From Cherax quadricarinatus (Eukaryota > Arthropoda > Malacostraca > Decapoda > Parastacidae), in assembly GCF_038502225.1 (NCBI RefSeq), contig NC_091369.1:17225224-17289223 (forward strand): DNA of 64,000 nt. Reading direction: 5' to 3'. The first letter of the stretch is position 1. Each line of letters begins with the position of its first letter. The notes under the pieces are model-generated. The model made no database searches and was not told the DNA's origin. It was given only the letters and a program-made list of their open reading frames with translations. Both the position numbers and the translations under genes were made by a program. This document shows positions 18,781 to 62,235 of this stretch, in pieces.

Positions 18781-18818
18781 GCTCTTTGGAGTAGCATGAG
18801 TATGTGAGTATTGTTTGT

Positions 18819-19322
18819 AGATGCAATGTCTGGATGTGATACCACAGGACATGTTTAGAATAGGGAAAGTAATACATAAAAATTCTCAAGTTATCACATT
18901 AGTTGTGATCACATTAGTTTATATTCGAGGACAGAGATGCCTCTAGATGCAATGTCTGGGTGCGATACCACAGGACATGTTTAGAATAGGGAAAGTAATA
19001 CATAAAAATTCTCAAGTTATCACATTAGTTGTGATCACATTAGTTTATATTCGAGGACAGAGATGCCTCTAGATGCAATGTCTGGGTGCGATACCACAGG
19101 ACATGTTTAGAATAGGGAAAGTAATACATAAAAATTCTCAAGTTATCACATTAGTTGTGATCACATTAGTTTATATTCGAGGACAGAGATGCCTCTAGAT
19201 GCAATGTCTGGATGTGATACCACAGGACATGTTTAGAAGAGGGAAAGTAATACATAAAAATTCTCAAGTTATCACATTAGTTGTGATCACATTAGTTTAT
19301 ATTCGAGGACAGAGATGCCTCA
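18819..19322. repeat. Tandem array, 4 x 126 bp
   Basis: Units start 'agatgcaatgtctgg' at 18819, 18945, 19071 and 19197. Period is exactly 126 bp and units differ by only a few substitutions. Each holds the near-palindrome 'attagttgtgatcacattag'. No open frame runs through the units. The high identity indicates recent amplification or homogenisation. Confidence 0.97.
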
Positions 19323-22337: not shown

Positions 22338-23575
22338 GGTCTTAGTACTACACAGTTTAAAAGAAAAGTAAAAAGGGGGATCAGAAAGGCTAAACGTGAC
22401 TATGAAATTAGAGTTGCTAATGAATCAAAGACTAATCCAAAAGGGTTCTTTTAAGTGTATACGACGAAGGTGAGTGAAAAAGTAGGACCTCTGAAAATTG
22501 GGAATGGACAGTTGAAAGATAACGAACTGGAAACGTGTTCTCTATTTAATGATTATTTTTTGTCAGTCTTTACACAAGAAGACGTAAATGAGATTCCAGA
22601 AATTAAAAATTATTTAGTTTCTGAAGAATTCAAATTAACTAGTATTACTGTCACGAAGGACATGGCTATCAAACAGATAGATAAACTGAAGCAAAATAAG
22701 TCCCTGGGGCCCAACGAGTTGTTTTCCAGAATACTTAGAGAATGCAAGATGGAACTTAGTCAGCCATTAACGAGTGTGTTTAATGCGCCCATCTTAACTA
22801 GTATTGTGCCAAAGATGTGGAAAATAGCTAATGTAGTTCCTATATTAAAATGAAGGGATAAGTCCACTCCTTCAAATTACCGTCCAATAAGCCTGACGTC
22901 TATAGTAGGCAAATTATTAGAATCAATTATAGCTGATATTATTAGAGGTCACCTTGAAGAGCATAATTTGATTAATGAATCTCAGCATGGGTTCACGAGA
23001 GGTTCCTGCCTGACAAATTTACTGACGTTCTTCAACAAAACATTTGAGGCAGTAGACAGAGTGATAAAGAATATGATATTGTTTTTGGATTTTTTTAAAG
23101 CCTTCGATAGAGTACCTCACAAGAGACTCTTAAGAAAAGTGGCAGCTCATGTTATAGGAGGTAAAGTTCTAGCATGGATAGAGGCATGGCTTACCAATAG
23201 AAAGCAGAAAGTTTCCATTAATAGGGTCAAATCTGAATGGGGATTAGTCACTAGTGGCGTTTCACAAAGATCAGTTTTAGGCCTCTCTTGTTCATAATTT
23301 ATATTAGAGACCTTGATGAAGGAATTACAAGTGACATGAGCAAATTTGCTTATTATACATTAATAGGCCGTACGATTCATTCTGAGTAGGATACCAATAA
23401 ATTCCAGGAGGATTCGGACAAATTAATGTCTCGGTCTGAAAAATGGCAGATGAAGTTTATTGTGGACAAGTGTAAAGCACTTGTCCTTGGTAATGAAAAT
23501 AACCCTTGAAGTTATAAACTATGTGAAGTAGAGCTTGATCATACAGAATGTAATAAAGTTGGTAGAATTACCGAC
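22338..23575 (+). pseudogene. CR1/L2-like LINE, RT region
   Basis: Plus-strand frames carry 'KVSEKVGPLKIGNGQLKDNE', 'FNDYFLSVFTQEDVNEIPEI', 'IDKLKQNKSLGPNELFSRIL', then a stop, then 'NYRPISLTSIVGKLLESIIA', 'QHGFTRGSCLTNLLTF', 'ILFLDFFKAFDRVPHKRLLR' and 'VTSGVSQRSVLGLS'. Beyond 23297 the palm is broken: the A-D-D block is not recognisable. The family is that of 39047-41640 and 51073-53638. It is truncated at its 3' side by the PLE that starts at about 23580. Confidence 0.8.
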
Positions 23576-23623
23576 AATATGTAAAGTAAAAGGACACAAG
23601 TGCAACTAATGTGACATTTATTG

Positions 23624-23660
23624 TGGCAACGTTTCGCTCTCCAGGAGCTTTATCAAGCCA
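23624..23660 (-). ncRNA. Hammerhead-like motif of PLE-1, copy 1
   Basis: On the minus strand: stem I 5' arm UGGC (23660-23657), core UUGAUAA (23656-23650), linker A, stem II GCUC-CUGGA-GAGC (23648-23636), GAAA (23635-23632), palindromic CGU (23631-23629), U at the cleavage position, stem I 3' arm GCCA (23627-23624). The layout matches hammerheads with a minimal stem III. Core positions equivalent to C3 and G8 are U and A, which could still pair. Confidence 0.7.
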
Positions 23661-23936
23661 TTACAAAAAATACATGGACACAGAGGGTATATAAAGGCTC
23701 TGAGTGAGGTGCAATACTAGTGAGGTACCATTTCGATGTTCACTAGTGGTAGTAGTAGTAGTAGTAACAAAAATAATGCAATATGGAAGAGCAAATAATT
23801 CGTACATGAGTAAAAGGATATAAAAGCTATTACTTGGGTAACATAAAAATAGGTTGGACAAATATAGACTGGAAAGATGCAGCTTCTTTCAGTGTTCACT
23901 CTCTGTAATGTGCTTTGCGTAATATAACAGGAGAGA

Positions 23937-25403
23937 CTATGTGATGGCAGGGTTTACTGTTTTCAGGAGGATTCTTGCTAAGACTTCGGAGATGGTGAAG
24001 CAGCCATTGTTTTGTTTAATTGTATTCGAAACAGCGATCAGTGCTGATTCAAGGCACTTGCGTGTGCGGAAATTAGTTTCTTTGATCACTAATTGGGCGT
24101 CTCTGAATTTCATGAGATGATTGGTGGAATTTCGGTGTTGTACACAGGCGTTGTTTAAGTTGTCGTTCCTACATGCGTAAATGTGTTCATTGAGGCGGGT
24201 GTCGAGGTTTCTTGCTGTTTCACCTACGTAGATCTTGTCACAGCCTCCACAGGGTATAGTGTAAACTCCTGCATTGACTGGTTCGTGGTGCTTGGGTTTT
24301 GTCCTGGTTAGATCCTTTATTGAAGTTGTAGAAGCGATGGCGACTCTGGTGTTAGCTTGTGAAAGTACTTTTGAGACGTTTAGTGCAACCTGGCTGTTGG
24401 GAAGAATTATAACTTTGTTGGGAGCGGTGTTGATGCGTGGAGAATTGATGATCTGAAGAGCTCTTTTCTTGCAGTCTTTGATGAAAAAAGAAGGAAATTG
24501 TAACTCAGTGAATGTTTGGTGAATGTAAGTACATTCCTCGTCAAGAAACTCAGGACTACAAATTCGGTATGCTCTTAGGAAAAACCCGATGATGATGCCT
24601 CTTTTGGTCTTGGTATCTTGACTGGAATAGAAGTGTGTGAGATCATTTTTATTGGTGGGTTTCCGATAAACTTGAAATCTTAGGTTGTTGTCTACTTTGT
24701 GAATGAGGACATCGAGGAAAGGTAGCTTGTCATTGGACTCTTCTTCTAGTGTAAACTGAATCGCTGGTTCAACTGCGTTGAGCCTTGCCTGAAGATCCCG
24801 TACATCAAAACGTTTTGGAGTTATTACGAGGACATCGTCCACGTAACGTAACCAAGTGACGCTTGAAGGGATGATGTTGGCGAAGTGTTCGGACTCTAGG
24901 TGTTCCATGTATAAGTTGGCTAGGACGGCACTTATTGGGGACCCCATTCCCATGCCGTAGGTTTGTTTGTAGAGCTTGTTATTGAAAGAAAAACAGTTGA
25001 AGTTAACACAGAGTTCAATCAAGTCAACAAAATCTCCGGGAGGTAAAGGAAGATTAAGGTCCTGGTTGACTTTACGTCGTAGAACCTCGATGGCTTTTTT
25101 GGTAGGTACTTTTGTGAAGAGGGAAGTCACATCCAAACTGCTTAGTTTCTTGTTACGGATGGAGAGGTTACGGATGCGGTTGAGAAGGTCGCATGAGTGT
25201 TTAAGATGAGCGGGGCTGATGGTCCCCAGAAGGCAGGAAAGATGTTTGGCAAGAACTCCGGCTAGTTTGTGTGGAGCACTGCCTATTCCTGACGTGATTG
25301 GTCTGAGAGGAATATTGTGTTTATGGGTCTTGGGTAAACCATACATGTGTGCTGGTTTAGGGTTGCTTGGTAACAAGTACAGAAGTTTCTTTCCTTCTCT
25401 AGT
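23937..25403 (-). CDS. PLE-1 reverse transcriptase with GIY-YIG endonuclease (N-terminus missing)
   Basis: The uninterrupted frame encodes the Penelope-type RT: 'MYGLPKTHKHNIPLRPITSG', 'LSSLDVTSLFTKVP' (catalytic Asp), 'KQTYGMGMGSPISAVLANLY' and 'WLRYVDDVLVI' (catalytic Y-V-D-D). After a linker comes a GIY-YIG endonuclease: 'GVYTIPCGGCDKIYVGETAR', with G-V-Y and I-Y-V-G, then 'LDTRLNEH' with Arg, 'HLMKFRDAQLV' and 'KCLESALI' with Glu. PLEs use this nuclease to cut target DNA and prime copying. About 480 residues are present; the N-terminal 'ADKGGG' region kept in copy 2 is lost here. No stop or frameshift is visible in the remaining part. Confidence 0.92.
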   Translation of the reverse strand, partial: TREGKKLLYLLPSNPKPAHMYGLPKTHKHNIPLRPITSGIGSAPHKLAGVLAKHLSCLLGTISPAHLKHSCDLLNRIRNLSIRNKKLSSLDVTSLFTKVPTKKAIEVLRRKVNQDLNLPLPPGDFVDLIELCVNFNCFSFNNKLYKQTYGMGMGSPISAVLANLYMEHLESEHFANIIPSSVTWLRYVDDVLVITPKRFDVRDLQARLNAVEPAIQFTLEEESNDKLPFLDVLIHKVDNNLRFQVYRKPTNKNDLTHFYSSQDTKTKRGIIIGFFLRAYRICSPEFLDEECTYIHQTFTELQFPSFFIKDCKKRALQIINSPRINTAPNKVIILPNSQVALNVSKVLSQANTRVAIASTTSIKDLTRTKPKHHEPVNAGVYTIPCGGCDKIYVGETARNLDTRLNEHIYACRNDNLNNACVQHRNSTNHLMKFRDAQLVIKETNFRTRKCLESALIAVSNTIKQNNGCFTISEVLARILLKTVNPAIT

Positions 25404-28400
25404 GCCTAACTCCTTTGATAAATCCTACCTCCGCACGTCTTTGACCATGTTTCCGGCTTCTCCCTATAAGTTGCGACGATTTTCAGATCACCCGCACATC
25501 TCTGGTCGGACCACCTCTGTTTCCCCACCTAGACGACCCCGACAGTTAACAGATGACACTGCTTCAACTACCTCTCGCTCTTCCCAGAAATGACTAGCAC
25601 GACACTCACTCTCACACACTACGTTCCAAAGTACTCAATATACCAAGTTTTTAACTCTGCAACCGACATCTCTCACTGATTATATTTCTGATCATAGTAT
25701 CAGCTAGGCACTCCTGCGCCATGTTGGTCAAAATATTTTAATTCTTCATTTAAAAGTGGTCCACGCATATTTACGGTATGAAACGCTGGCCAGGCCTGTA
25801 GTCTGTCCATTCTTACCTAAATGATACTCCTGTCACTATTCAGAATCACTTTTCTCTCAATTCTTGCAGTGGTACTGTAGCCCTTCCTCATGTCGTTGTT
25901 CAACGTGATTTCCGCACATGTGACACCGACATTCTGGAGCATCTTGAGCTCAAAGACCTCCCAGTTCTCAAAGTGGACACTTATGTATTTCCTGCCCGCA
26001 GGTGGAGACGCTTCCCCTGCAATGTAGCTTGCTCAGGGTTTTGATTGCCGAGAACTTCCGGCCTCAGTCTATATTCAGGACACCGTTTATAAGTCCAAAA
26101 GTCGATCTCTACACCACAATAGTGTAGAAATCGTTGGCGCTTCAGCTACTCTGTGAAATATTGTCCATGGCAGAATACCCAGTCTGTGATGCTCCTGACC
26201 ATACCAATACATCCTGCAACCTACCTACCTCCTGTTTTAATTATAATAAGGCTCACCCAGCTTATTTATGTCATTGCCAAGTTTACTTTAAAGAACAAGA
26301 AATCCTCTGTCTCAAAGAAAAAAAGGGTTTCACTTACGCAATGGCAATCTCTCATCTCCTCTTCAAAGGAAAATTTCCAGGAGGTACCTTGGTGGTACCT
26401 ACTTCAACAATCTCCCCTGTCTACAAGACCTTTCACAATCTCCTTTGTCTACAAGACCTTTCACAACTACACCAGCCCATGGCCTCTCTACTTCTAAGCC
26501 ATCCCCAAAGTTCGAATCTCCTTTAACTCTTCCTTTATTTATCTTTACAAACATCTTTCTTTTCCAGTCTCATTGCTTTACCTCTTACTGTCTCTGTTAC
26601 GGGTGTGGAGGTTCATCCTCTCCTGTCCGCTCCCAAGTTTCTTCCCAAGCTAAGTCTAGCTTTTTAGCCTCCCTTCTTTGATGACTTCCATCGTCTCTTC
26701 GACTTTTTCTCACCCTCCTCCTTCTGTCTCTGACATACTATCTGCAACGTTTTTGTCTTCTGAAACGCCTGAAGCTGTGTCCGAATATGATAAGGAAACA
26801 AAACCAATGGTGGACACCGATCCACCTCCCATTACTCCTTTTCCTCGCTTTTCTAAACCATCTTCATGACTCCTTCCTTTGCAGTTGCTGCAATTCTTCG
26901 CTACCCATTTATCTTCCTCTTCCTCCTCATCTAGACTTTACTAACCCTCTTCCTCCAGACACACCTACTACTTCATGATACCTATATACCTTTCTTTGTA
27001 AATCATGAATTATTTTCAGTGGAATATTCGAGGCCTCAGGGATAATCGGCGTGAGCTTCAGGTGTAGCTCTTCCAGTTTTTCCTTGTGTCTGTTTACAAA
27101 AACCTATATTGCGCTCCGCTGTTATTCATCCTGTCTCGGGCTGCATTTTACTGCATTCATTGGAGCCTTTTCTGAGGAAACTTTTAATGTAAGTGCACTT
27201 CTTATTCGAACCGGTATATATCATACCATCAGATCTTTGTTCATACTTCGCTGCATTACACTGCAGCACGTATCTACTTGAACAAGTGGTATACAGTCTG
27301 CTCTTTATATCTTTCTGCTCTCGAGCATTATCTATTCCAGCTATTGCATTTCTGGTTTCTTCCCTACCGCCACATCTCTTATTAGGTAATTTTAATGGTC
27401 ATCATTTCCTCCGGGGGACTCACTGCGACTCTCGTGGCGATCAGTTAGAGGCTCTTCTCACTTCTCTTCCCCTCCATGTTTTAAATATGGGTACTCCCAC
27501 CAATTTTGATCCTTTTGATCCTCATACTCAATCTCTCTCTCTTGCATTGATCTCTCGGTTTTCTTGTTCTCAACTGCGCTTGACTTGACATTACCTGGTC
27601 TGTGCTCCCAGATTTATATGACAGCAATCATTTTCCTATCCTCCTTACCTCCCATTCATATTATCGTCCTCCTCGAAGCCCACGTTGGCAATTTAAATGG
27701 ACGAATTGAGACCTTTACTGGTGTCAAACCATCTTTAGTGAGAAGCCTTCGACCTGCACTGATAACCTATTACAACTATTTTTGACTTCGATTTTAACCG
27801 AGTCTGTACATTCAGTTTTTTTTTTTTTTTCAAAATTTGTGTAGGCACTCTCAGAAATGTGGTTTCCTGCTTGTGCTCATGCAATAGGTTTGAATTATGC
27901 TGTATGAGGCTGATATCATTACAATAGGACCACAGAACGACTCCTTAATTTTAAGAGAGTGAGAGGTTGCTTGTTGTGTCATCGGTGAAGCCAAACGCAT
28001 TTATTGGGGATTTATGTTTCTACCATTACTTTGTCAGCATAGTTGCTGTTCATCCTTATGTGTGTTGTATAGCTTAGCTGAGTATCATAGTACCATCCAT
28101 GTGTTTTATATAGACGATCCCTACTAGGCCTAGTGACTGTATGACGTCACGGGATGCGGCATGAGTGAGTGGGATGCGCTACCTCACTCTCAGTCCATGC
28201 TTAGACCTACCAGGCAGCAACACGGCAGACTGGGCCTCCCTTACCACAGTCTGACAATATATAGTGTTACCATCCACAAGTGTGTTTATCTTCAACCATC
28301 ATATCTCCTTACGAACCCCCATGACAACTTCGGATTCCTCTATGAGTGAAATTAGGAGAAAGGTACAGAAACTGAGTGGCAAGTATTCTCTAGACCCGTC

Positions 28401-33440: not shown

Positions 33441-33538
33441 TCGTAGTGTTTGCTTAAGTTTCTATTTAAATTAGCCTTGTTAATTGCATAAAGATAATAA
33501 GTTTCAGGAAACATTTCCGAGCAACAATCATACAGTTC

Positions 33539-34772
33539 TTAGGCCGCTACAGTGCTGAGGCCGCTACAGTGCTGAGGCCGCTACAGTGCTGAGGCTGCTA
33601 CAGTGCTGAGGCTGCTACAGTGCTGAGGCTGCTACAGTGCTGAGGCTGCTACAGTGCTGAGGCCGCTACAGTGCTGAGGCTGCTACAGTGCTGAGGCTGC
33701 TACAGTGCTGAGGCTGCTACAGTGCTGAGGCCGCTACAGTGCTGAGGCTGCTACAGTGCTGAGGCTGCTACAGTGCTGAGTCCGCTACAGTGCTGAGGCT
33801 GCTACAGTGCTGAGGCTGCTACAGTGCTGAGTCCGCTACAGTGCTGAGGCTGCTACAGTGCTGAGGCTGCTACAGTGCTGAGGCCGCTACAGTGCTGAGG
33901 CCGCTACAGTGCTGAGGCTGCTACAGTGCTGAGGATGCTACAGTGCTGAGGCCGCTACAGTGCTGAGGCTGCTACAGTGCTGAGGCTGCTACAGTGCTGA
34001 GGCTGCTACAGTGCTGAGGCTGCTACAGTGCTGAGGCTGCTACAGTGCTGAGGCCGCTACAGTGCTGAGGCTGCTACAGTGCTGAGGCTGCTACAGTGCT
34101 GAGGCCCCCTACAGTGCTGAGGCTGCTACAGTGCTGAGGCTGCTACAGTGCTGAGGATGCTACAGTGCTGAGGCCGCTACAGTGCTGAGGATGCTACAGT
34201 GCTGAGTCAGTGCTGCTACAGTGCTGAGGCTGCTACAGTGCTGAGGCTGCTATAGTGCTGAGACCGCTAGAGTGCTGAGGCTGCTACAGTGCTGAGGCCG
34301 CTACAGTGCTGAGGCTGCTACAGTGCTGCTACAGTGCTGAGGCCGCTACAGTGCTGAGGCTGCTACAGTGCTGAGTCACAGTGCTGAGGCTGCTACAGTG
34401 CTGAGGCTGCTACAGTGCTGAGGCTGCTACAGTGCTGAGTCCGCTACAGTGCTGAGGCTGCTACAGTGCTGAGTCAGCTACAGTGCTGAGGCGGCTACAG
34501 TGCTGAGGCTGCTACAGTGCTGAGGCTGTGCTGACAGTGCTGAGTCCGCTACAGTGCTGAGGCTGCTACAGTGCTGAGTCCGCTACAGTGCTGAGGCTGC
34601 TACAGTGCTGAGGCTGCTACAGTGCTGAGGCTGCTACAGTGCTGAGTCCGCTACAGTGCTGAGGCTGCTACAGTGCTGAGTCCGCTACAGTGCTGAGGCT
34701 GCTGCAGTGCTGAGTCCGCTACAGTGCTGAGGCTGCTACAGTGCTGAGGCCGCTACAGTGCTGAGGCCGCTA
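33539..34772. repeat. 17-bp minisatellite, about 70 copies
   Basis: The unit gctacagtgctgaggcc/t repeats almost without break. Variants concentrate at the last bases (ggct, ggcc, gtcc, ggat). A few units are shortened or fused (34205, 34325, 34377, 34525). It begins exactly where other modules have the tRNA-like segment 'cttacagtgccgagggagc' (46157-46175), which suggests the seed of the repeat. No spacer/repeat alternation is present. Confidence 0.97.
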
Positions 34773-46070: not shown

Positions 46071-46227
46071 TAGTGTTTGCTTAAGTGCCTTTTTGAATTA
46101 GCTAATTTAACTGGAGCAAGATAATAGGTTTCAGGAAACATGTCCGAGCTACGGTCTTACAGTGCCGAGGGAGCAACCAGTTGATTGTTAGGTAAGACAC
46201 ATATGCAACAGTTAGGTATCTTTATTA

Positions 46228-46264
46228 TGAAACGTTTCGCCTACACAGTAGGCTTCTTCAGTCA
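46228..46264 (-). ncRNA. Hammerhead ribozyme motif, array unit 1
   Basis: Minus strand: stem I UGA (46264-46262), core CUGAAGA (46261-46255), A, stem II GCCUA-CUGUG-UAGGC (46253-46239), GAAA (46238-46235), palindromic CGU (46234-46232), U (cleavage position), stem I UCA (46230-46228). CUGANGA...GAAA is the canonical catalytic core. Stem III is only the 2-bp palindrome ACGU, so a dimeric fold is expected. Confidence 0.8.
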
Positions 46265-46656
46265 AGTACAGAAAAGTTGATAGAAGCAGAAGATACTTGA
46301 AGACGATGTAATCAGTCCATCACCCTTAAAGTTTTGAGGTGGACAGTCCCTCAGTCTGGAGAAGAGCATTGTTCCATAGTATGAAACAATATGGAGATGA
46401 AGTGACAGGTTGGAGCTTTTTATAGCGCCAAGAGGTGAGACGTAGGCCACTAGGAGAGGTAAGAACTCAGATGCTGAGAGGTCAGGTCCCTCTCAAATCC
46501 AGCCGCTCTCACTAGTGGAAGTTGTCGAAGTTGATTGCAGGTCTGTACCAAGATACCCTTGTGTTGCAGTGTCTGACAGATTGAACATTAAAATGGTATA
46601 AAATACCGACAGGTTGTTAGGTAAGACACATATGCAACAGTTAGGTATCTTTATTA

Positions 46657-46693
46657 TGAAACGTTTCGCCTACACAGTAGGCTTCTTCAGTCA
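46657..46693 (-). ncRNA. Hammerhead ribozyme motif, array unit 2
   Basis: Same core, stem II and stem I as unit 1, shifted by 429 bp. Confidence 0.8.
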
Positions 46694-47088
46694 AGTACAG
46701 AAAAGTTGATAGAAGCAGAAGATACTTGAAGACGATGTAATCAGTCCATCACCCTTAAAGTTTTGAGGTGGTCAGTCCCTCAGTCTGGAGAAGAGCATTG
46801 TTCCATAGTATGAAACAATATGGAGATGAAGTGACAGGATGGAGCTTTTTATAGCGCCAAGAGGTGAGACGTAGGCCACTAGGAGAGGTAAGAACTCAGA
46901 TGTTGAGAGGTCAGGTCCCTCTCAAATCCAGCCGCTCTCACTAGTGGAAGTTGTCGAAGTTGATTGCAGGTCTGTACCAAGATACCCTTGTGTTGCAGTG
47001 TCTGACAGATTGAACATTAAAATGGTATAAAATACCGACAGGTTGTTAGGTAAGACACATATGCAACAACAGTTAGGTATCTTTATTA

Positions 47089-47125
47089 TGAAACGTTTCG
47101 CCTACACAGTAGGCTTCTTCAGTCA
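47089..47125 (-). ncRNA. Hammerhead ribozyme motif, array unit 3
   Basis: Same motif. The 3-nt insertion of this unit lies outside it. Confidence 0.8.
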
Positions 47126-47517
47126 AGTACAGAAAAGTTGATAGAAGCAGAAGATACTTGAAGACGATGTAATCAGTCCATCACCCTTAAAGTTTTGAGG
47201 TGGACAGTCCCTCAGTCTGGAGAAGAGCATTGTTCCATAGTATGAAACAATATGGAGATGAAGTGACAGGTTGGAGCTTTTTATAGCGCCAAGAGGTGAG
47301 ACGTAGGCCACTAGGAGAGGTAAGAACTCAGATGTTGAGAGGTCAGGTCCCTCTCAAATCCAGCCGCTCTCACTAGTGGAAGTTGTCGAAGTTGATTGCA
47401 GGTCTGTACCAAGATACCCTTGTGTTGCAGTGTCTGACAGATTGAACATTAAAATGGTATAAAATACCGACAGGTTGTTAGGTAAGACACATATGCAACA
47501 GTTAGGTATCTTTATTA

Positions 47518-47554
47518 TGAAACGTTTCGCCTACACAGTAGGCTTCTTCAGTCA
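47518..47554 (-). ncRNA. Hammerhead ribozyme motif, array unit 4 (partial unit)
   Basis: Same motif in the truncated fourth unit. The ribozyme itself is complete. Confidence 0.8.
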
Positions 47555-47693
47555 AGTACAGAAAAGTTGATAGAAGCAGAAGATACTTGAAGACGATGTA
47601 ATCAGTCCATCACCCTTAAAGTTTTGAGGTGGACAGTCCCTCAGTCTGGAGAAGAGCATTGTTCCATAGTATGAAACAATATGGAGATGAAGT

Positions 47694-48830
47694 AGGAACG
47701 AACGAACGAAAGTTCAGGTAAGATCCCAAATGGGATGAGCGGGGAAGACGGGACAGACGAAGAATAGTGCTGGAGAGGAGTGTTCTTAGTCGTAGAAATA
47801 GAGCCAGGGCTTAACCCAGCAGCAAAGGCGATCGTGGGACAGATATTGAAAAGAGAAATTCCGGTTCTTCTGTTGGGACTCCGGTGGGGTGAGTTGGGAG
47901 TAAGGGACTTGCGACGTTTAGAGCTAGAAAGGAGTGCAGAACTGAGTCATGTCTTAACCCAAAAAAGCTAAGGCGAACGTGGGTCAGAGAATGGTACCTG
48001 TCTTAGAAGGTACCTGTCAGCGGATCCAAGGTTATTTGTAAGTAGGGTTAGGAGCAGGATCATGCAAGGAGTAGAAAAGGTTGTGTTGGTTTGTGGGTCT
48101 GCGAATGTCTTCGCCAAGGAGAGAGGTCCAGTAGTCATGTCGTGTCTCAAGTTTGTCTATCTGTCTGTCACTGAGCCTCTTCCAGTACAGATTCAGCGCA
48201 GGGACGTCTAACTGGGCATGGAGAGACTCGCTTGTGGCGAAGTCCTCCCATCTGACATCAAGCACCCAGCGCAGCGCCTTGTTCTGGACACGCTGCAGTT
48301 TAAGTAAGTTTGTTTTTGCTGCAAGGGAGAGGACTAGAGGAGAGTAAGTTATCAGAGGACGTATTAGGGATTTGTAGAGGTGTAGTTTGGTGCGTTGAGA
48401 GGCATGTTTCAGCTTGTAGAGGCCCGCAAGGGCCTTACTAGCTATTGCATGCCTTGAGTGAATGTGTCCGTGTAAACGAAGAAGGTAGTCAAGATTAACG
48501 CCAAGGACAGTGACAGATTGTGTGATAGGGAAGTAAGTGCGGGTGTCAGCTGTTCTGAGTTCGACAGGTAATGGAGGATCACGTTTCCTGTAGTTAAAAT
48601 ACGTAATGCTGGATTTTGCTGCATTGGTTTTGATCCTCCATTTTTGTTCCCAGATGGCTATCCTGTCAACCTCATTTTGTGTTTTGTGTGTGAGTGTATC
48701 TATATTGGGATTCACGTCCCATTTCCTTCCATCGACTGTTAGAGTAGAGGTACTGAAGTTTGCGATTGAGTTTGATCTTCTGTTGGAGGTTAGCTGTGGT
48801 GACTGTGCTGAGAATATGCTCATGAATCCC
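47694..48830 (-). mobile_element. Jockey-type LINE 3' end
   Basis: It ends on its own strand with (ttcg)n next to the interrupted array unit, which shows insertion into the array. It carries the C-terminal ORF2 frame described below and about 340 bp of 3' UTR. The 5' side abuts PLE-1 copy 2 at 48831. Confidence 0.8.
48032..48823 (-). CDS. Jockey-clade LINE ORF2, C-terminal 263 residues
   Basis: An uninterrupted frame after the RT palm: 'VDRIAIWEQKWRIKTNAAKS', 'TYFPITQSVTVLGVNLDYLL', 'SKALAGLYKLKHASQRTKLH', 'LYKSLIRPLITYSPLVLSLA' and 'NLLKLQRVQNKALRWVLDVR' are hallmarks of the Jockey clade thumb and tail. The catalytic domains are absent (5' truncation or loss at the PLE junction). The residual frame has no visible break. 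Confidence 0.82.
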   Translation of the reverse strand: MSIFSAQSPQLTSNRRSNSIANFSTSTLTVDGRKWDVNPNIDTLTHKTQNEVDRIAIWEQKWRIKTNAAKSSITYFNYRKRDPPLPVELRTADTRTYFPITQSVTVLGVNLDYLLRLHGHIHSRHAIASKALAGLYKLKHASQRTKLHLYKSLIRPLITYSPLVLSLAAKTNLLKLQRVQNKALRWVLDVRWEDFATSESLHAQLDVPALNLYWKRLSDRQIDKLETRHDYWTSLLGEDIRRPTNQHNLFYSLHDPAPNPTYK

Positions 48831-48837
48831 TGATAAA

Positions 48838-50314
48838 CAACTTATCGTCACGCACCTTAACCGACTACGAAAAACAAGCACTGAGTCTGGGACTCAAATT
48901 TACCACCAACATACGCAAACCTAACTATCAACTTAATCTAGTTACCAGGAACCATAGACACAGTGACAGCAACTTCCAGAAGGGTTATATACAGGGCCTT
49001 CTCACTGCAGCTTTATGTGAACCTTCTACTTCTAATCTTCCTAGACGATACATCACTGCCCTTAAGAACCTCGCCGACGACCCCAACATTATCGTCACCA
49101 CCGCCGACAAAGGAGGTGGAGTCGTCATCCTCAACACCAGTGACTACAACACTAAAATGATGGACCTTTTGAATGATCAATCTACATACGAACCCATCAG
49201 CACTCAACAGTGGGAGACGCTCACCAAAGATTTTCTATACAAAACCAGACAAATACTCAAACGCACTAGAGAAGGGAAGAAACTTCTGTACTTGTTACCA
49301 AGCAACCCTAAACCAGCACACATGTATGGTTTACCCAAGACCCATAAACACAATATTCCTCTCAGACCAATCACGTCAGGAATAGGCAGTGCTCCACACA
49401 AACTAGCCGGAGTTCTTGCCAAACATCTTTCCTGCCTTCTGGGGACCATCAGCCCCGCTCATCTTAAACACTCAGGTGACCTTCTCAACCACATCCGTAA
49501 CCTCTCCATCCGTAACAAGAAACTAAGCAGTTTGGATGTGACTTCCCTCTTCACAAAAGTACCTACCAAAAAAGCCATCGAGGTTCTACGACGTAAAGTC
49601 AATCATGACCTTAATCTTCCTCTACCTCCCGGAGATTTTGTTGACTTAATTGAACTCTGTATTAATTTCAACTGTTTTTCTTTCAATAACAAGCTCTACA
49701 AACAAACCTACGGCATGGGAATGGGGTCCCCCATCAGTGCCGTCCTAGCCAACTTATACATGGAACACCTAGAGTCCGAACACTTCGCCAACATCATCCC
49801 TTCAAGCGTCACTTGGTTACGTTACGTGGACGATGTCCTCGTAATAAATTCGAAACGTTTTGATGTACGGGATCATCAGGCAAGGCTTAACGCAGTTGAA
49901 CCGGCGATCCAGTTTACACTAGAAGAAGAGTCCAATGACAAGCTACCTTTCCTCGACGTCCTCATTCACAAAGTAGACAACAACCTAAGATTTCAAGTTT
50001 ATCGGAAACCCACCAATAAAAATGATCTCACACACTTCTATTCCAGTCAAGATACCAAGACCAAAAGAGGCATCATCATCGGGTTTTTCCTAAGAGCATA
50101 CCGAATTTGTAGTCCTGAGTTTCTTGACGAGGAGTGTACATACATTCACCAAACATTCAGAGTTACATTTTCCTCCTTTTTTCATCAAAGACTGCAAGAA
50201 AAGAGCTCTTCAGATCATAAATTCTCCACGCATCAACACCACTCCCAGCAAAGTTATAATTCTTCCCAACAGTCAGGTTGCACTGAACGTCTCAAAAGCA
50301 CTTTCACAAGCTAA
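48838..50314 (+). pseudogene. PLE-1 reverse transcriptase (frameshifted before the endonuclease)
   Basis: The open frame reads 'NNLSSRTLTDYEKQALSLGL' and 'NIIVTTADKGGGVVILNTSD' (N-terminal PLE signature), then RT 'MYGLPKTHKHNIPLRPITSG', 'SLDVTSLFTKVPTKK', 'YGMGMGSPISAVLANLYMEH' and 'WLRYVDDVLVINS'. Compared with copy 1, two bases are missing near 50158 ('attcagagtt' for 'attcactgagtt'). The frame therefore leaves after 'TYIHQTF', and the endonuclease continues in the next frame at 50124-50729. No start is evident because the element abuts a LINE. Confidence 0.9.
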
Positions 50315-50729
50315 CACCAGAGTCGCCATCGCTTCTAGCATTTCAATAAAGGATATAACCAGGACAAAATCCAAGCACCACGAACCAGTCAATGCAGGAG
50401 TTTACACTATACCCTGTGGAGGCTGCGACAAGATTTACGTAGGTGAAACAGCCAGAAACCTCGACACCCGCCTCAATGAACACATTTACGCATGTAGGAA
50501 CGATAACCTGAACAACGCCTGTGTACAACACCGAAATTCCTCCAGTCATCTCATGAAATTCAGAGACGCCCAATTAGTGATCAAAGAAACTAATTTCCGC
50601 AGACGCAAGTGCCTCGAATCAGCACTGATCGCTGTTTCGAATACAATTAAACAAAACAACGGCAGCTTCACCATCTCCGAAGTCTTAGCAAGAATCCTCC
50701 TGAAAACAGTAAACCCTGCCATCACATAG
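50124..50729 (+). CDS. PLE-1 C-terminal part with GIY-YIG endonuclease (separated by frameshift)
   Basis: The frame carries 'FPPFFIKDCKKRALQIINSP', then 'GVYTIPCGGCDKIYVGETAR', 'NLDTRLNEHIYACRND', 'SSHLMKFRDAQLVIKETNFR' and 'CLESALIAVSNTIKQNNGSF', ending '...LLKTVNPAIT' as in copy 1. GIY-YIG residues (G-V-Y, Y-V-G, Arg, Glu) are present. It cannot be made as one protein with the RT unless the shift is bypassed. Confidence 0.9.
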   Translation: MTRSVHTFTKHSELHFPPFFIKDCKKRALQIINSPRINTTPSKVIILPNSQVALNVSKALSQANTRVAIASSISIKDITRTKSKHHEPVNAGVYTIPCGGCDKIYVGETARNLDTRLNEHIYACRNDNLNNACVQHRNSSSHLMKFRDAQLVIKETNFRRRKCLESALIAVSNTIKQNNGSFTISEVLARILLKTVNPAIT

Positions 50730-51011
50730 TCTCTCCTGTTATACTACACAAAGCACAGAAAGTGAACACTGAAACAAGCTGCCTCATTCCAGTTTATATT
50801 TGTCCAACCTATTTTTATGTTACCCAAGTAATAGCTTTTATATCCTTTTACTCATGTACGAATTAATTGCTTTACCATATTGTATTACTTTTGTCACTAC
50901 CACTACTACTACTACTACTACTACCACTAGTGAACATCAAAATGGTACCTCACTAGTATTCACCTCACTCTGAGCCTTTATATACCCTCTGTGTCCATGT
51001 ATTGTTTGTAA

Positions 51012-51048
51012 TGGCTTGATAAAGCTCCTGGAGAGCGAAACGTTGCCA
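51012..51048 (+). ncRNA. Hammerhead-like motif of PLE-1, copy 2
   Basis: Stem I UGGC (51012-51015), core UUGAUAA (51016-51022), A, stem II GCUC-CUGGA-GAGC (51024-51036), GAAA (51037-51040), CGU, U at the cleavage position (51044), stem I GCCA (51045-51048). Identical to the motif of copy 1. It lies in the 3' region, as do known PLE hammerheads. Confidence 0.7.
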
Positions 51049-51553
51049 CAATAAATGTCACATTAGTTGCACTTGTGTCCTTTTACTTTACATATGGTCT
51101 ATAGTTCGAAGCCAAGGAACTGTCACCTGCCTTGTAAATAGGTATTACATTTGCCATTTTCCACTTATCAGGCACTATGCCAGTTTGTAGTGATATGTTA
51201 AAAAGATTAGCCAAAGGTATGCTAAGTTCCCCTTTACATTCCTTTAACACCCTTGCAAACAGTTCATTAGGACCTGGGGATTTGTTAGGTTTTAGTTTCT
51301 CTATTTGTCAGAGGACCATGTCACTAGTTACCGCAATCGTACATAGTTTATTATCATCCTGTTCTACGTAATCTATTATTTCAGGAATATCGCTAGTATT
51401 TTCCTGAGTGAAAACTGAGAGGAAGAAGGTATTTAGAATTTCACACATATCCTTATCAATGTCAGTGATGTGACCAGAGTTACTCTTAAGCAGGCCAATC
51501 TTGTCCCTAATCTTACTTCTGTATACCTGAAAGAACCCTTTTGGTTTAGTCAT

Positions 51554-54911: not shown

Positions 54912-55150
54912 GTTGTTAGTTAGTTTAATATCTTTATTATGCACCCCATACCCATCCTGTGGGCGGTAGTCAAAAGATTACGAAGGTACGTAATGGGTCC
55001 AGGGACTGGACCCCAAAGTTATGACAGCTGAACTAGTTACAAAGGTAATGAACTCCAGGTAGATCTGGTCACAATCATGGCAAGTTACAAAGGTAATGAA
55101 TCAGCCTCATTCCTATACATGGTTACAGTCATGAACAAATTACAAAGTAA
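54912..55150 (-). mobile_element. Short non-autonomous retroposon inside PLE-2
   Basis: The block splits the PLE-2 reading between 'RICDPQF' and 'LNQKFHSSQ'. On the minus strand it ends 'gggtgcataataaagatatt' followed by (aact)n. It contains three spaced copies of 'gttacaaaggtaatgaa' and the palindromic 'gggtccagggactggacccc'. The likely target duplication is only ttct. No coding sequence is present. Confidence 0.65.
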
Positions 55151-56072
55151 TGAACCACTTCTTGAATCAGAAATTTCACTCTTCACAATTCACTTTCCGT
55201 CTTGGCTACCCTTCCCATTTCATAGACTCTGCCTTCTTACGTGCTAAACGTAATTTCTTCTCTCCCAAACTCTCTACTCATGGGAACTCTTCTGTCCTCT
55301 GCCTTCCCTACATTTCCGGTCTTTCTAATCTCAACAACTCTCTCCGTTCCTTAGACATCAAACTTACTTTTCACCAGACTAACACTCTTCACACTAATCT
55401 CGTCCATACCTCTCCTCCCTCTACAGATGCTCCTGGTGTCCACTCTATTTCTTGTTCCTCCTGTCCTCTTCAGTACTTCGGGGAAACTGGCCGATCTCTT
55501 TCTGACAGACTTAGGGAGCACAAAAATAGTGTTAGGCTTGCCGACAATAACAATGCTCTTTTCTGTCACGTCAGAGTTCACAGTCATTCTATTGACTGGT
55601 CTTCTGCTAAAACTGTCTTCCCTACTTCCAACTTTAACAGTCGCCGTCTGGTTGAATCCTCCCTTAAACACAACTTTCCTTGTATGAATCTTAGTCGTGG
55701 CTTCGTCTCTGTAGATGCCTTCCTCTCCCACTACATTGTAAAATGCTCCAAACTTCAGAACACCCGTGTCTTAATTTGATTCCTTTTTTTCTTCTTCTCA
55801 CCTCTTCCCTTTTCCTCTTTCTTTTTTTCTCCTTTGGGCTGTCTTTCTTCTGCCTTGGGTATTTGTTCCTTCATTATTTATTTTTCCTCCCTCTATGCTC
55901 TTGTACTTACCCTCTGTGGGCACCTAGCTCCCTTGCATTGCTCCTCTTTCCTAGTATTTGACTGGCTCTACCTCCACCATAGTACCTCCCCCACTACTAC
56001 CTTCTACCTCCACTACTACCACTACCACCACCTGGCCTATTTACTCCCTCCTCCTCTCCTTTTCGTTAGTGT

Positions 56073-59439: not shown

Positions 59440-60383
59440 CACTGATGCAATGGGTATTTTCGTGGACAGTTAGTATGAGAAGCACTGGGAAAACAAGGTA
59501 GTGGAGGGAGGAGGTGCGTAAGGAAATTTCGTGTAATCTTAAGGAGAGGGACACGACAGCATTAGGGGCAACCACTGAAGAGGAGGAAAATTTAGGGCAA
59601 TGTCAGCAATGGCAACGGGTAAATCCCGGTAATTTATGGTATTCCAGTTGAATTTTGTCATGCATTGTGAGTTGTTGCGGGGGGTTTCCGTACGTCTCAT
59701 GAATGCAATGAAAGATGTGGATAAATTGGGACATGCTCAGTCGACGGCGGTCGTCATGTTGATCCCAATGGGTAAGACGCAAGTAGGAATTTGTGATTAT
59801 CGTGCTATTTCACTCTTGAGTGCGTATTGTAAACTTTTTGCTAAGGTGTTGGATAATTGACTAAAGTGTGTCGTGGGTTTTGTTGTTACACCTGGTCAGA
59901 ATGGTATTTCTTAAAGATCCATGTTAGCAGGTCCTTCCATTACTGATGATTATGTGAGTACATTGCAGTTGAAAGGGAGGAAGGGTGCATTATTTGTCCT
60001 TGACCGAAGACGAGTGCACGATTCGGTGGATCGGGACACTATGCACAGTAGTCTACTTAAGCAGGTGTTTGGGATGGAAATAGTGAGGTGGTTGGATACG
60101 CTGTGTTGTGGAGCGATGGCTAGGGTCCAAGTGAACAGTAGATTAGGCAGGGTTGTACCCATGAGTATAGGTTTGAGGCAGGGTTGTACCCATGAGTATT
60201 GGTTTGAGGCAGGGTTGTCCATTGTCTTAGACACTCTTCGCATGTTTTTTGCATGCGTGCAGGACCTGTTCAGTAGGCTGGTTTTTGGTAGGGTGATGAT
60301 TTTGGGAAGCAGCATTTTTCCATGATGATACGACGCTATTGGTGAAGGAGCATACAAACCTTCCAGCGCTAGAAGGGGTAGTT
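59440..60383 (+). pseudogene. LINE E (L1/Tx1-type) RT fragment
   Basis: Frames give 'GIPVEF' near 59640, 'STAVVMLIPMGKTQVGICDY' and 'RAISLLSAYCKLFAKVLDN' (59700-59860), 'RKGALFVLDRRRVHDSVDRD' (catalytic Asp region) and 'IGLRQGC'. A 31-bp tandem duplication at 60146-60207 shifts the frame. 'GSSIFP' then replaces the palm, although in another frame 'AFFHDDTTLLV' keeps D-D. The clade is by resemblance. It resumes after the insertion at 60384-60643. Confidence 0.65.
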
Positions 60384-60643
60384 AGGTAAGACACATATGC
60401 AACAGTTAGGTATCTTTATTTCGAAACGTTTCGCCTACACAGTAGGCGTCTTCAGTCGAGTACAGAAAGGTTGATAGAAGCAGAAGATACTTGAAGACGA
60501 TGTAATCAGTCCATCACCCTTAAAGTTTTGAGGTGGACAGTCCCTCAGTCTGGAGAAGAGCATTGTGAGAACGGCTGTGTTTGAGAAGGACCTGCCCTCC
60601 CAAAGCAACCTACGTCTCACCTCCTGGCACTATATAAAGGCCC
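60384..60643 (-). mobile_element. Retrozyme-like unit inserted with 15-bp TSD and 5' inversion
   Basis: The sequence ctagaaggggtagtt stands at 60369-60383 and 60644-60658. Between them, 60384-60567 is the 3' part of a unit of the 429-bp family on minus, with its hammerhead. Positions 60568-60643 carry the upstream part ('aacctacgtctcacctcctg', TATA-like 'ctatataaagg') on plus. Inversion of the 5' part is the signature of twin priming, seen in endonuclease-dependent retrotransposition. Confidence 0.85.
60421..60459 (-). ncRNA. Hammerhead ribozyme motif (compensatory variant)
   Basis: Minus strand: stem I UCGA (60459-60456), core CUGAAGA (60455-60449), C, stem II GCCUA-CUGUG-UAGGC, GAAA, CGU, U, stem I UCGA (60424-60421). 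Compared with the array units, both members of the third stem I pair changed (U-A to C-G), and the fourth gained a U-A pair. Confidence 0.8.
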
Positions 60644-60790
60644 CTAGAAGGGGTAGTTGGGACGTTTGGAAAGGCTTTGTGGACGTCGATAAATCTAAAC
60701 TCTCGGATGTTGATGAGTGGGTTCACCGTAGGAGTTGGGGAAGATTGATCATAACGAATGTGGAGAGGTCTTTATGTATGTCTATCTGTG
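60644..60790 (+). pseudogene. LINE E, continuation
   Basis: After the TSD the LINE E sequence goes on ('gggacgtttggaaaggcttt', 'gttgatgagtgggttcaccg') to about 60790, where AT-rich sequence begins. Confidence 0.55.
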
Positions 60791-61330
60791 TAGGTGTGTG
60801 TTAGTACATATATGTGCAGGTGTGAAAATATATATAGGTATACATATGTACGTATATGTACATGGAATGTGTGTATGTTAATATATTCATATGTGTCTGG
60901 TGATAAATTAAAAGCATTGTCCTTTATTATAGGTATATGATTATATGTGTATATATGTGTATTTGTTAGTGTATGTGTATTGGATATTCATGTATATGTA
61001 TGTACATCTAGGTATCACCATTGTATTCAGGGATTGTAAATGCGTAGCACGGTGTGTATTTAATGCCAGGGTGTATTAGAACAATTATGTATACTAGTGT
61101 ATGTTCTCAACGTTGACTAGTGCCACTTCTAAGTTCTTTATCACAAAATATGTTGTTGTAACATACTCAGTGTAGTACATCGAAACTAATTTCAGGTAAC
61201 CATATATTTAAGTGTCTTGTGAATATGTGTAAATATAACGCCAGTAGTGAAACTTATTTATAATTTGTATTACAAACGTATTAAAAATATGTTACATATT
61301 AATGTTTAATTAAATATGTAGTTGATATTG
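60791..61330. other. AT-rich sequence with (TATG)-like runs
   Basis: Alternating purine-pyrimidine runs ('acatatgtacgtatatgtac') and no gene. Confidence 0.7.
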
Positions 61331-62235
61331 TATTTAACCACGTGAGAGTGGCGGTAGTGTTAGCTTGTTTAATGTTTAATATTGATAATGTGTTTAACAA
61401 CGTGATAGTGGCCGTGGTGTTATCTTGTTTAATGTTTAATATTGATAATGTGTTTAACCACGTGATAATGGCCGTGGTATTAACTTCTTTAATGTTTAAT
61501 ATTGATAATGTGTTTAACCACGTGTTAGTGGCCGTGGTGTTAACTTGTTTAATGTTTAATCTTGATAATGTGTTTAACCACGTGATAATGGCCGTGGTAT
61601 TAACTTCTTTAATGTTTAATATTGATAATGTGTTTAACCACGTGTTAGTGGCCGTGGTGTTAACTTGTTTAATGTTTAATATTGATAATGTGTTTAACCA
61701 CGTGATAATGGCCGTGGTATTAACTTCTTTAATGTTTAATATTGATAATGTGTTTAACCACGTGTTAGTGGCCGTGGTGTTAACTTGTTTAATGTTGATA
61801 ATGTGTTTAACAACGTGATAGTGGCCGTGGTATTAACTTCTTTAATGTTTAATATTGATAATGTGTTTAACCACGTGTTAGTGGCCGTGGTGTTAGCTTG
61901 TTTAATGTTTAATATTGATAATGTGTTTAACAACGTGATAGTAGCCGTGGTGTTAACTTGTTTAATGTTTAAAATTGATAATGTGTTTAACCACGTGATA
62001 ATGGCCGTGGTATTAACTTCTTTAATGTTTAATATTGATAATGTGTTTAACAACGTGATAGTAGCCGTGGTGTTAACTTGTTTAATGTTTAATATTGATA
62101 ATGTGTTTAACAACGTGATAGTGGCCGTGGTATTAACTTGTTTAATGCTTAATGTTGATATTGTGTTTAAGAACGTGAGAGTGGCAATGGTGTTAACTTG
62201 TTTAATGTTTAATATTGTGTTTAACCACGTGAGTG
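61331..62235. repeat. 60-bp tandem repeat array, about 15 units
   Basis: The unit 'aatattgataatgtgtttaa' + ccacgtg + 'ataatggccgtggtattaac' + 'ttctttaatgttt' repeats every 60 bp. Two variants alternate in the middle (…gataatgg…tattaacttc and …gttagtgg…tgttaacttg), giving a 120-bp higher order from about 61440 to 61800. One unit near 61796 is 9 bp shorter. Each unit has the palindrome ccacgtg or variant caacgtg. Long frames on both strands arise because 60 is a multiple of 3. Confidence 0.95.

What the first reader, a model, noticed from the sequence alone, without database searches (positions are those of the whole stretch)
46186..47693. Tandem 429-432 bp units, each with a canonical-core hammerhead motif: a retrozyme candidate
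Each full unit carries CUGAAGA, a 5-bp stem II, GAAA and a stem III reduced to the palindrome ACGU, with a TATA-like element about 180 bp upstream on the same strand. Tandem head-to-tail arrangement and near identity fit retrozymes, whose RNA self-cleaves to monomers and circularises. The units are larger than many described animal ones, and an independent single insertion with a 15-bp TSD (60384-60643) shows that the family has moved.
Basis: partly seen in the sequence, partly recalled or inferred. Interest (0 to 1): 0.9.

Follow-up and report, generated by a model that had tools for sequence, protein, structure and literature searches.

The report
Ribozyme RNA-circle transposon in crayfish
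A crayfish chromosome carries tandem copies of a small non-coding unit with a predicted self-cutting ribozyme, and the shape of its insertions elsewhere in the genome indicates that it likely spreads when a Penelope-type reverse transcriptase copies a small RNA circle, several times round, from both cut strands of the target DNA.

Summary
I read 46 places of this family in the genome. Complete insertions are not plain tandem arrays: two inverted arms meet at a variable joint between 11-15 bp target duplications (27 insertions resolved, 22 arrays not; 0 of 698 mismatched flank pairs match as well). In 24 of the 27, one end lies near unit position 46 and the other near 78; three differ. This is the 'tail' signature of Penelope-like elements (PLEs), and a PLE in the window shares the tail. 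Insertion-specific variants present in every unit of both arms, and an insertion carrying one 221-nt deletion junction nine times across both arms, point to a small RNA circle as template; the 221-nt unit runs from the predicted ribozyme cut to a second look-alike cut site. Hammerhead stems covary across ten family representatives. So it likely works like a retrozyme, but the ribozyme is the minimal PLE kind, not canonical, and PLE ends and inverted arms were missed. The finding's own array has mixed units and may come from a longer, linear template. There is no RNA evidence.

The parts
46185..47693 (-). tandem array of 429/432-bp units (RNA sense on minus strand); position 46185 = unit position 46, the 'short' end
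46234..46261 (-). hammerhead core, unit 1 (CTGAAGA to GAAAC)
46663..46690 (-). hammerhead core, unit 2
47095..47122 (-). hammerhead core, unit 3
47524..47551 (-). hammerhead core, partial unit 4
46228..46235 (-). ACGTTTCA, predicted natural cut site (cut between 46231 and 46230, unit 429|1)
   Evidence: cut inferred from the hammerhead fold
46436..46443 (-). ACGTCTCA, the only other ACGTHTCA in the unit (positions 217-224)
   Evidence: cut predicted only
46582..46613 (-). 'tail', unit positions 47-78, with the motif TGTCGGTATTTTATACC, between the two preferred cDNA start sites
46418..46424 (-). TATAAAA, unit position 236
   Evidence: function inferred
46401..46405 (-). TCACT, initiator-like, unit position 255
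   Evidence: function inferred
47694..48706 (.). foreign stretch beginning at unit position 257; its first ~150 bp have an 89% relative at the same unit position in L015; I read it as a non-LTR element fragment, but Pfam finds nothing in its frame
48707..48822 (-). inverted piece of PLE-1 coding sequence (99% to L017)
48823..51107 (+). PLE-1 copy: reverse transcriptase and GIY-YIG frames, hammerhead relative TTGATAA at 51016
23565..25405 (-). second PLE-1 copy, 95% identical, with the long tail at its 3' end
60384..60643 (-). separate single insertion of a related unit; left end short type, right end near unit position 248 (an exception to the end rule)
60369..60383 (.). left copy of its 15-bp target duplication
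60644..60658 (.). right copy of its 15-bp target duplication

Best explanation
The array belongs to a family of 429-nt non-coding mobile units that is likely spread by the reverse transcriptase-endonuclease of Penelope-like elements, which would copy a small ribozyme-made RNA circle several times round from both nicked strands of the target. Shown: insertions are two inverted arms between 11-15 bp duplications; their ends favour two sites on either side of a tail motif shared with PLE-1; arms run to 6.9 turns; variants peculiar to an insertion sit in one unit or in (nearly) all units of both arms; one insertion carries a 221-nt deletion junction nine times, in both arms. Inferred: transcription from the internal TATA/initiator, hammerhead cleavage, closure of the RNA by a host ligase, staggered cutting by the PLE endonuclease, priming of both strands on one circle, joining of the two cDNA ends in the middle. 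Some copies, perhaps including the finding's own array, may come from longer or linear templates.
For: Duplications: 27 insertions with 11-15 bp (chosen for having one), 0 of 698 mismatched pairs reach 9. End rule 24 of 27. Seven diverged-family insertions picked by hand from 19 rows and two PLE-1 insertions (2 of 5 PLE-1 places tested gave a duplication) follow it, as do all 7 close inverted PLE-1 pairs (ends 386-396 against 408; duplications not checked). Tail and downstream positions 36-119 align to the PLE-1 5' region with score 66, shuffles at most 34 of 1000. Published PLE enzyme starts at two adjacent internal sites and extends both strands (PMC11167929). Arms: 22 of 36 exceed one turn. 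Private variants in 45 stretches: 143 in one copy, 11 in all, 2 in all but one; all 5 'all' cases with three or more copies span both arms. 221-nt units: 9 identical junctions in L044, also in L057 and L058. Covariation: 96.8% of cells paired against 80.1% shuffled, 0 of 500.
Against: No RNA or cleavage data. Three of 27 insertions break the end rule (J47 two long ends, L045 long plus 411, window 60384-60643 short plus ~248). Positions 186 and 250 are mixed within several insertions (186: L011, L012, L020, L025, L029 and the window array), which one monomer circle does not explain; the finding's own array is one of them and has a 3-nt insertion in one unit. That array and L015 break at position 257, the A of the initiator-like TCACT, which could be run-off at the start of a linear transcript (though L015 resumes at 253, as after a later insertion). 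These two are not in the inner-end counts. In vitro the anole PLE did not need hammerhead cleavage, and unprocessed RNA was the main substrate (PMC11167929). Folding energy gives no support. Rfam finds no hammerhead. PLE-1/unit chimeras (L012, L013, L014) have no resolved duplication.
Confidence: 0.72

Rival explanations
1. PLE enzymes copy long linear multi-unit transcripts of existing arrays; the hammerhead plays no part.
For: The anole enzyme uses unprocessed RNA in vitro (PMC11167929). Mixed units at 186 and 250. The window array and L015 break at the initiator-like A257. The end rule alone needs only one bound tail, not a circle.
Against: 221-nt units without promoter or hammerhead, with one junction repeated in both arms. 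Private variants in all copies of both arms. Arms copied from linear arrays could only shorten with each round, yet 22 of 36 exceed one unit. None of 46 inner ends lies within 3 nt of the cut site or of 257 (0.8 expected, so weak; the window array and L015 left out).
Confidence: 0.17
2. RNA circles are the template, but they are closed by other means (back-splicing, random ligation); the hammerhead is a relic.
For: L045 has a variant in all six copies at 397 that breaks a stem I pair and was still copied. The 221|1 junction has 3 nt of microhomology, and its two flanks are near-repeats (ACGTYTCA), so template switching could make it.
Against: Stem I, stem II and the C3-G8 pair covary over families. 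The 221-nt unit starts, within the 3-nt ambiguity, at the predicted cut and ends at the only other ACGTHTCA in the unit, in three insertions of at least two sequence types.
Confidence: 0.08
3. An ordinary satellite made by unequal crossing-over.
For: Head-to-tail near-identical units.
Against: Dispersed insertions with target duplications and inverted arms; preferred ends at two unit positions.
Confidence: 0.01
4. A DNA transposon with terminal inverted repeats.
For: Inverted ends and target duplications.
Against: The two ends differ (46 and 78), arms vary from 13 to 2967 nt, joints vary, duplications vary from 11 to 15 bp.
Confidence: 0.02

Closest known systems
Metazoan non-LTR retrozymes (PMC7229834, passages seen)
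   Same: Non-coding tandem units of a few hundred bp, GC below 50%, hammerhead in each unit, target duplications above 4 bp, circular RNA proposed as template and PLEs proposed as movers.
   Different: Hammerhead here is the minimal kind; complete insertions are inverted pairs of arms with PLE tail ends, which the main text of that paper does not mention ('inverted' and 'tail' absent).
Penelope-like elements with minimal hammerheads and 'tail' (PMC11167929 parts 1-2 of 4; PMC3846280 passages)
   Same: Two start sites bounding a ~31-bp tail, both strands extended, inverted ends, tail at one of them, TATA and TCACT, minimal hammerhead.
   Different: The unit has no gene; it forms multi-turn tandem arms and a 221-nt version without hammerhead.
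Plant LTR retrozymes (PMC4918200 in search listing; PMC7761336 passages)
   Same: Hammerhead elements thought to move through RNA circles.
   Different: Type III hammerhead in LTRs, tRNA primer site, 4-bp duplications, Gypsy enzymes proposed.

Membership tests
Metazoan non-LTR retrozyme | non-coding tandem repeats of 150-450 bp with GC below 50% | tested here: met
   429 bp, GC 42.9%; longest frame from ATG 35 aa
Metazoan non-LTR retrozyme | canonical type I hammerhead with helix III | tested here: not met
   helix III only ACGU, no loop; loop-loop contacts not tested
Metazoan non-LTR retrozyme | target duplications longer than 4 bp | tested here: met
   11-15 bp in 27 resolved insertions
Metazoan non-LTR retrozyme | expressed as circular RNA | not testable with these tools
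   indirect genome evidence only
Penelope-like element | reverse transcriptase and GIY-YIG gene | tested here: not met
   unit has no gene; PLE-1 in the window has both
Penelope-like element (as mover of the unit) | tail bounded by two start sites; inverted ends, one with tail | tested here: met
   24 of 27 unit insertions; shared tail motif
Plant LTR retrozyme | 4-bp target duplication | tested here: not met
   11-15 bp
Plant LTR retrozyme | LTRs, tRNA primer site, polypurine tract | not tested
   no search was made for the primer site or tract
Rfam hammerhead families | score above the family threshold | tested here: not met
   no match

The most novel reading that the evidence does not exclude
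One ribozyme-born RNA circle is the shared template for both cut strands of the target: a pair of Penelope reverse transcriptases starts on either side of one hairpin and runs round the same circle, so that an insertion is a two-headed rolling-circle transcript; the ribozyme also cuts a second site in its own RNA and throws off 221-nt minicircles that transpose with neither ribozyme nor promoter.
Probability: 0.42. Interest if true: 0.87.

Novelty: new variant of a known kind. Interest (0 to 1): 0.78.

Why it matters
Who moves animal retrozymes, and whether their RNA circles are the template, stands in print as a suggestion (PMC7229834). Here the insertions carry readable evidence on both: Penelope ends on a non-coding ribozyme unit, both strands primed, and units whose multiplication is hard to explain without a circle. 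The family gives natural insertion data for the two internal start sites so far measured in vitro for a lizard element, and a directly testable system. My searches of the held library showed no report of two-armed insertions of a non-coding hammerhead element; I read few of the listed papers, and most subscription papers are not held.

Tried and rejected
Rfam: no hammerhead. Folding the hammerhead region and the tail alone: z -1.10 and 0.35, no support. A first motif script took the extra A for part of stem II and counted no strict motif; mended. Enrichment of inner ends in positions 1-82 (14 of 36, P 0.005) faded for arms over 100 nt (9 of 31, P 0.12) and is not used. Divergence within arm, between arms and between loci (0.0038, 0.0090, 0.0084) mixed in nested foreign copies and is replaced. 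PLE-1/unit chimeras in L012, L013 and L014 count only as hints (no duplication). In one search, 12 of 19 rows were dropped by hand: overlapping alternatives, matches inside unit or hammerhead sequence, or the minisatellite of L039. A search for other copies of the stretch beginning at 257 did not complete.

Full report
Where it is. The window is C78:17225224-17289223 of a 3.95 Gb, 7334-contig genome. Two proteins named Cherax quadricarinatus sit on contigs of 35,288,191 and 28,828,059 bases, the exact lengths of C36 and C55, so I take the host to be this crayfish.

The observation. The array, the minus-strand hammerhead cores and the single copy with a 15-bp duplication are there. I number the unit on the minus strand from the first base after the predicted cut, GAAACGTT|TCATAAT. 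The core starts at 399, TATAAAA at 236, TCACT at 255. The longest frame from ATG is 35 aa.

Sampling. One search scored 40 of 559 candidate places, 40 of 460. From these I read 46 places: the window, L009-L043 and ten more (J46, J47, J48 are joined overlapping stretches). Smaller unit pieces in L010, L012, L013, L014, L023, L024, L035 and L038 were not counted as insertions. Principal arrays without a resolved duplication: 22, among them the array of the finding.

Anatomy. 27 insertions have a resolved duplication of 11-15 bp; mismatched flank pairs never exceed 8 (0 of 698 reach 9). Each has a minus arm on the left and a plus arm on the right, so both outer ends are the 3' side of the RNA; some arms are only 7-40 nt long. 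In 24 of 27 one end lies at 39-49 and the other at 75-85, as read from alignments that can run a few bases into the duplication. Exceptions: J47 (two long ends), L045 (long and 411), window 60384-60643 (short and about 248). If ends were drawn independently, at least 24 mixed pairs of 25 would have probability 8e-7. Eighteen insertions were measured in detail (16 with duplication, plus L027 and L040): 9 have the short end left, 9 right; 22 of 36 arms exceed one unit, the longest 6.92; joints overlap by up to 5 bases or hold up to 18 extra.

Empty site. In L021 the unit sits in a PLE-1 copy; the window copy of PLE-1 is unbroken there and covers both flanks with a 12-base overlap, positions 50693-50704.

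Link to Penelope-like elements. PLE-1 in the window has reverse transcriptase and GIY-YIG domains. Its 3' end has a hammerhead relative, about 46 nt, then the tail TGTCGGTA..TACC. L017 shows the PLE-1 5' region: the tail runs into the open frame; unit positions 36-119 align to it with score 66, shuffles at most 34 of 1000. The hammerhead-side alignment is weaker (59; shuffled maximum 51 of 500). So the unit looks like a PLE end region without the gene. In print, the anole PLE starts at two adjacent internal sites bounding the tail and extends both strands (PMC11167929, parts 1-2 of 4); a rotifer Penelope has a 31-bp tail at one of its inverted pLTRs (PMC3846280, passages). Seven diverged-family insertions, two PLE-1 insertions and seven inverted PLE-1 pairs fit the rule.

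Template. (a) Multi-turn arms, as above. (b) Of 46 inner ends, none within 3 nt of the cut site or of 257, against 0.8 expected: weak, and the window array and L015, which break at 257, are not in it. (c) Private variants: 143 in one copy, 11 in all, 2 in all but one; with three or more copies, all five 'all' cases span both arms (L031 3/3, L043b 5/5, L045 6/6, J46 5/5, J47 3/3). (d) L044: 221-nt units equal to positions 1-221, without hammerhead or promoter, 8.1 in the right arm, the same junction once in the left arm, long and short ends, 12-bp duplication. The junction recurs in L057 (once) and L058 (twice), which carry A at 186 where L044 has G, so it probably formed at least twice. Against a strict monomer circle: mixed 186 and 250, the window array included. 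Joints in L021, L032, L051 and L058 suggest jumps to the start sites of another RNA.

The break at 257. In the window and in L015 a foreign stretch with about 150 related bases starts at position 257. L015 resumes at 253, which favours a later insertion at a preferred site; run-off at the transcript start followed by a template jump is the other reading. In the window the stretch is followed by an inverted piece of PLE-1 and PLE-1 itself; whether all of it is one insertion I cannot say.

The ribozyme. Rows are related by descent. Exactly two ACGTHTCA sites exist in the unit; the 221-nt unit spans from one to the other, with 3 nt of ambiguity, and template switching between these near-repeats could also make it. 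The extra A before stem II has a viroid precedent as I recall; no call shows it.

Verdict. A non-autonomous, Penelope-derived ribozyme element, very likely copied in good part from RNA circles. It works like a retrozyme; by the canonical-helix criterion it is not a member of the published metazoan set, and without the gene it is not a PLE. PMC7229834, PMC7761336, PMC8490949 and PMC10454600 were seen in passages only.

Noticed in passing
window 51016 (+), 23656 (-), 59019 (+); also L021, L039: Hammerhead relatives of PLE families with the core TTGANAA: C3 and G8 changed together to U3 and A8, a natural exchange of the core base pair.
   Followed up: partly
window 47694 and L015:3628: Related foreign stretches begin at the same unit position 257, the A of the initiator-like motif: a site-preferring element or run-off of a linear transcript.
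   Followed up: partly
L021:3341-3623, L032:4625-4857, L051, L058: Joints that land on unit position 78 or 46 after a random inner end, as if the enzyme jumped to the start site of another RNA.
   Followed up: partly
L012:5738-6086, L013:5228-5940, L014:3973-4240: PLE-1 3' end or tail joined directly to unit sequence, as if one enzyme copied both RNAs; no duplication resolved.
   Followed up: partly
L045: All six copies carry a change at unit position 397 that breaks a stem I pair of the hammerhead; this insertion also has an odd end at 411.
   Followed up: no
L013:5939-6730 (period 418), L023:2411-3166 (period 378): Other tandem families with units of similar size near the arrays; the L013 one carries TTGATAA hammerhead relatives.
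   Followed up: no
window 1864, 32753, 43733, 45454, 53638, 57627, 62867: Seven tRNA-Val(CAC) genes predicted in 64 kb.
   Followed up: no
window 33531-34772, 61322-62217, 18818-19321: Minisatellites of 17, 60 and 126 bp.
   Followed up: no
window 55135-55779 (+) and 56658 (+): Diverged GIY-YIG-like frame (no Pfam match, relative of PLE-1 at 27-28%) with a hammerhead-like core about 0.9 kb downstream.
   Followed up: no
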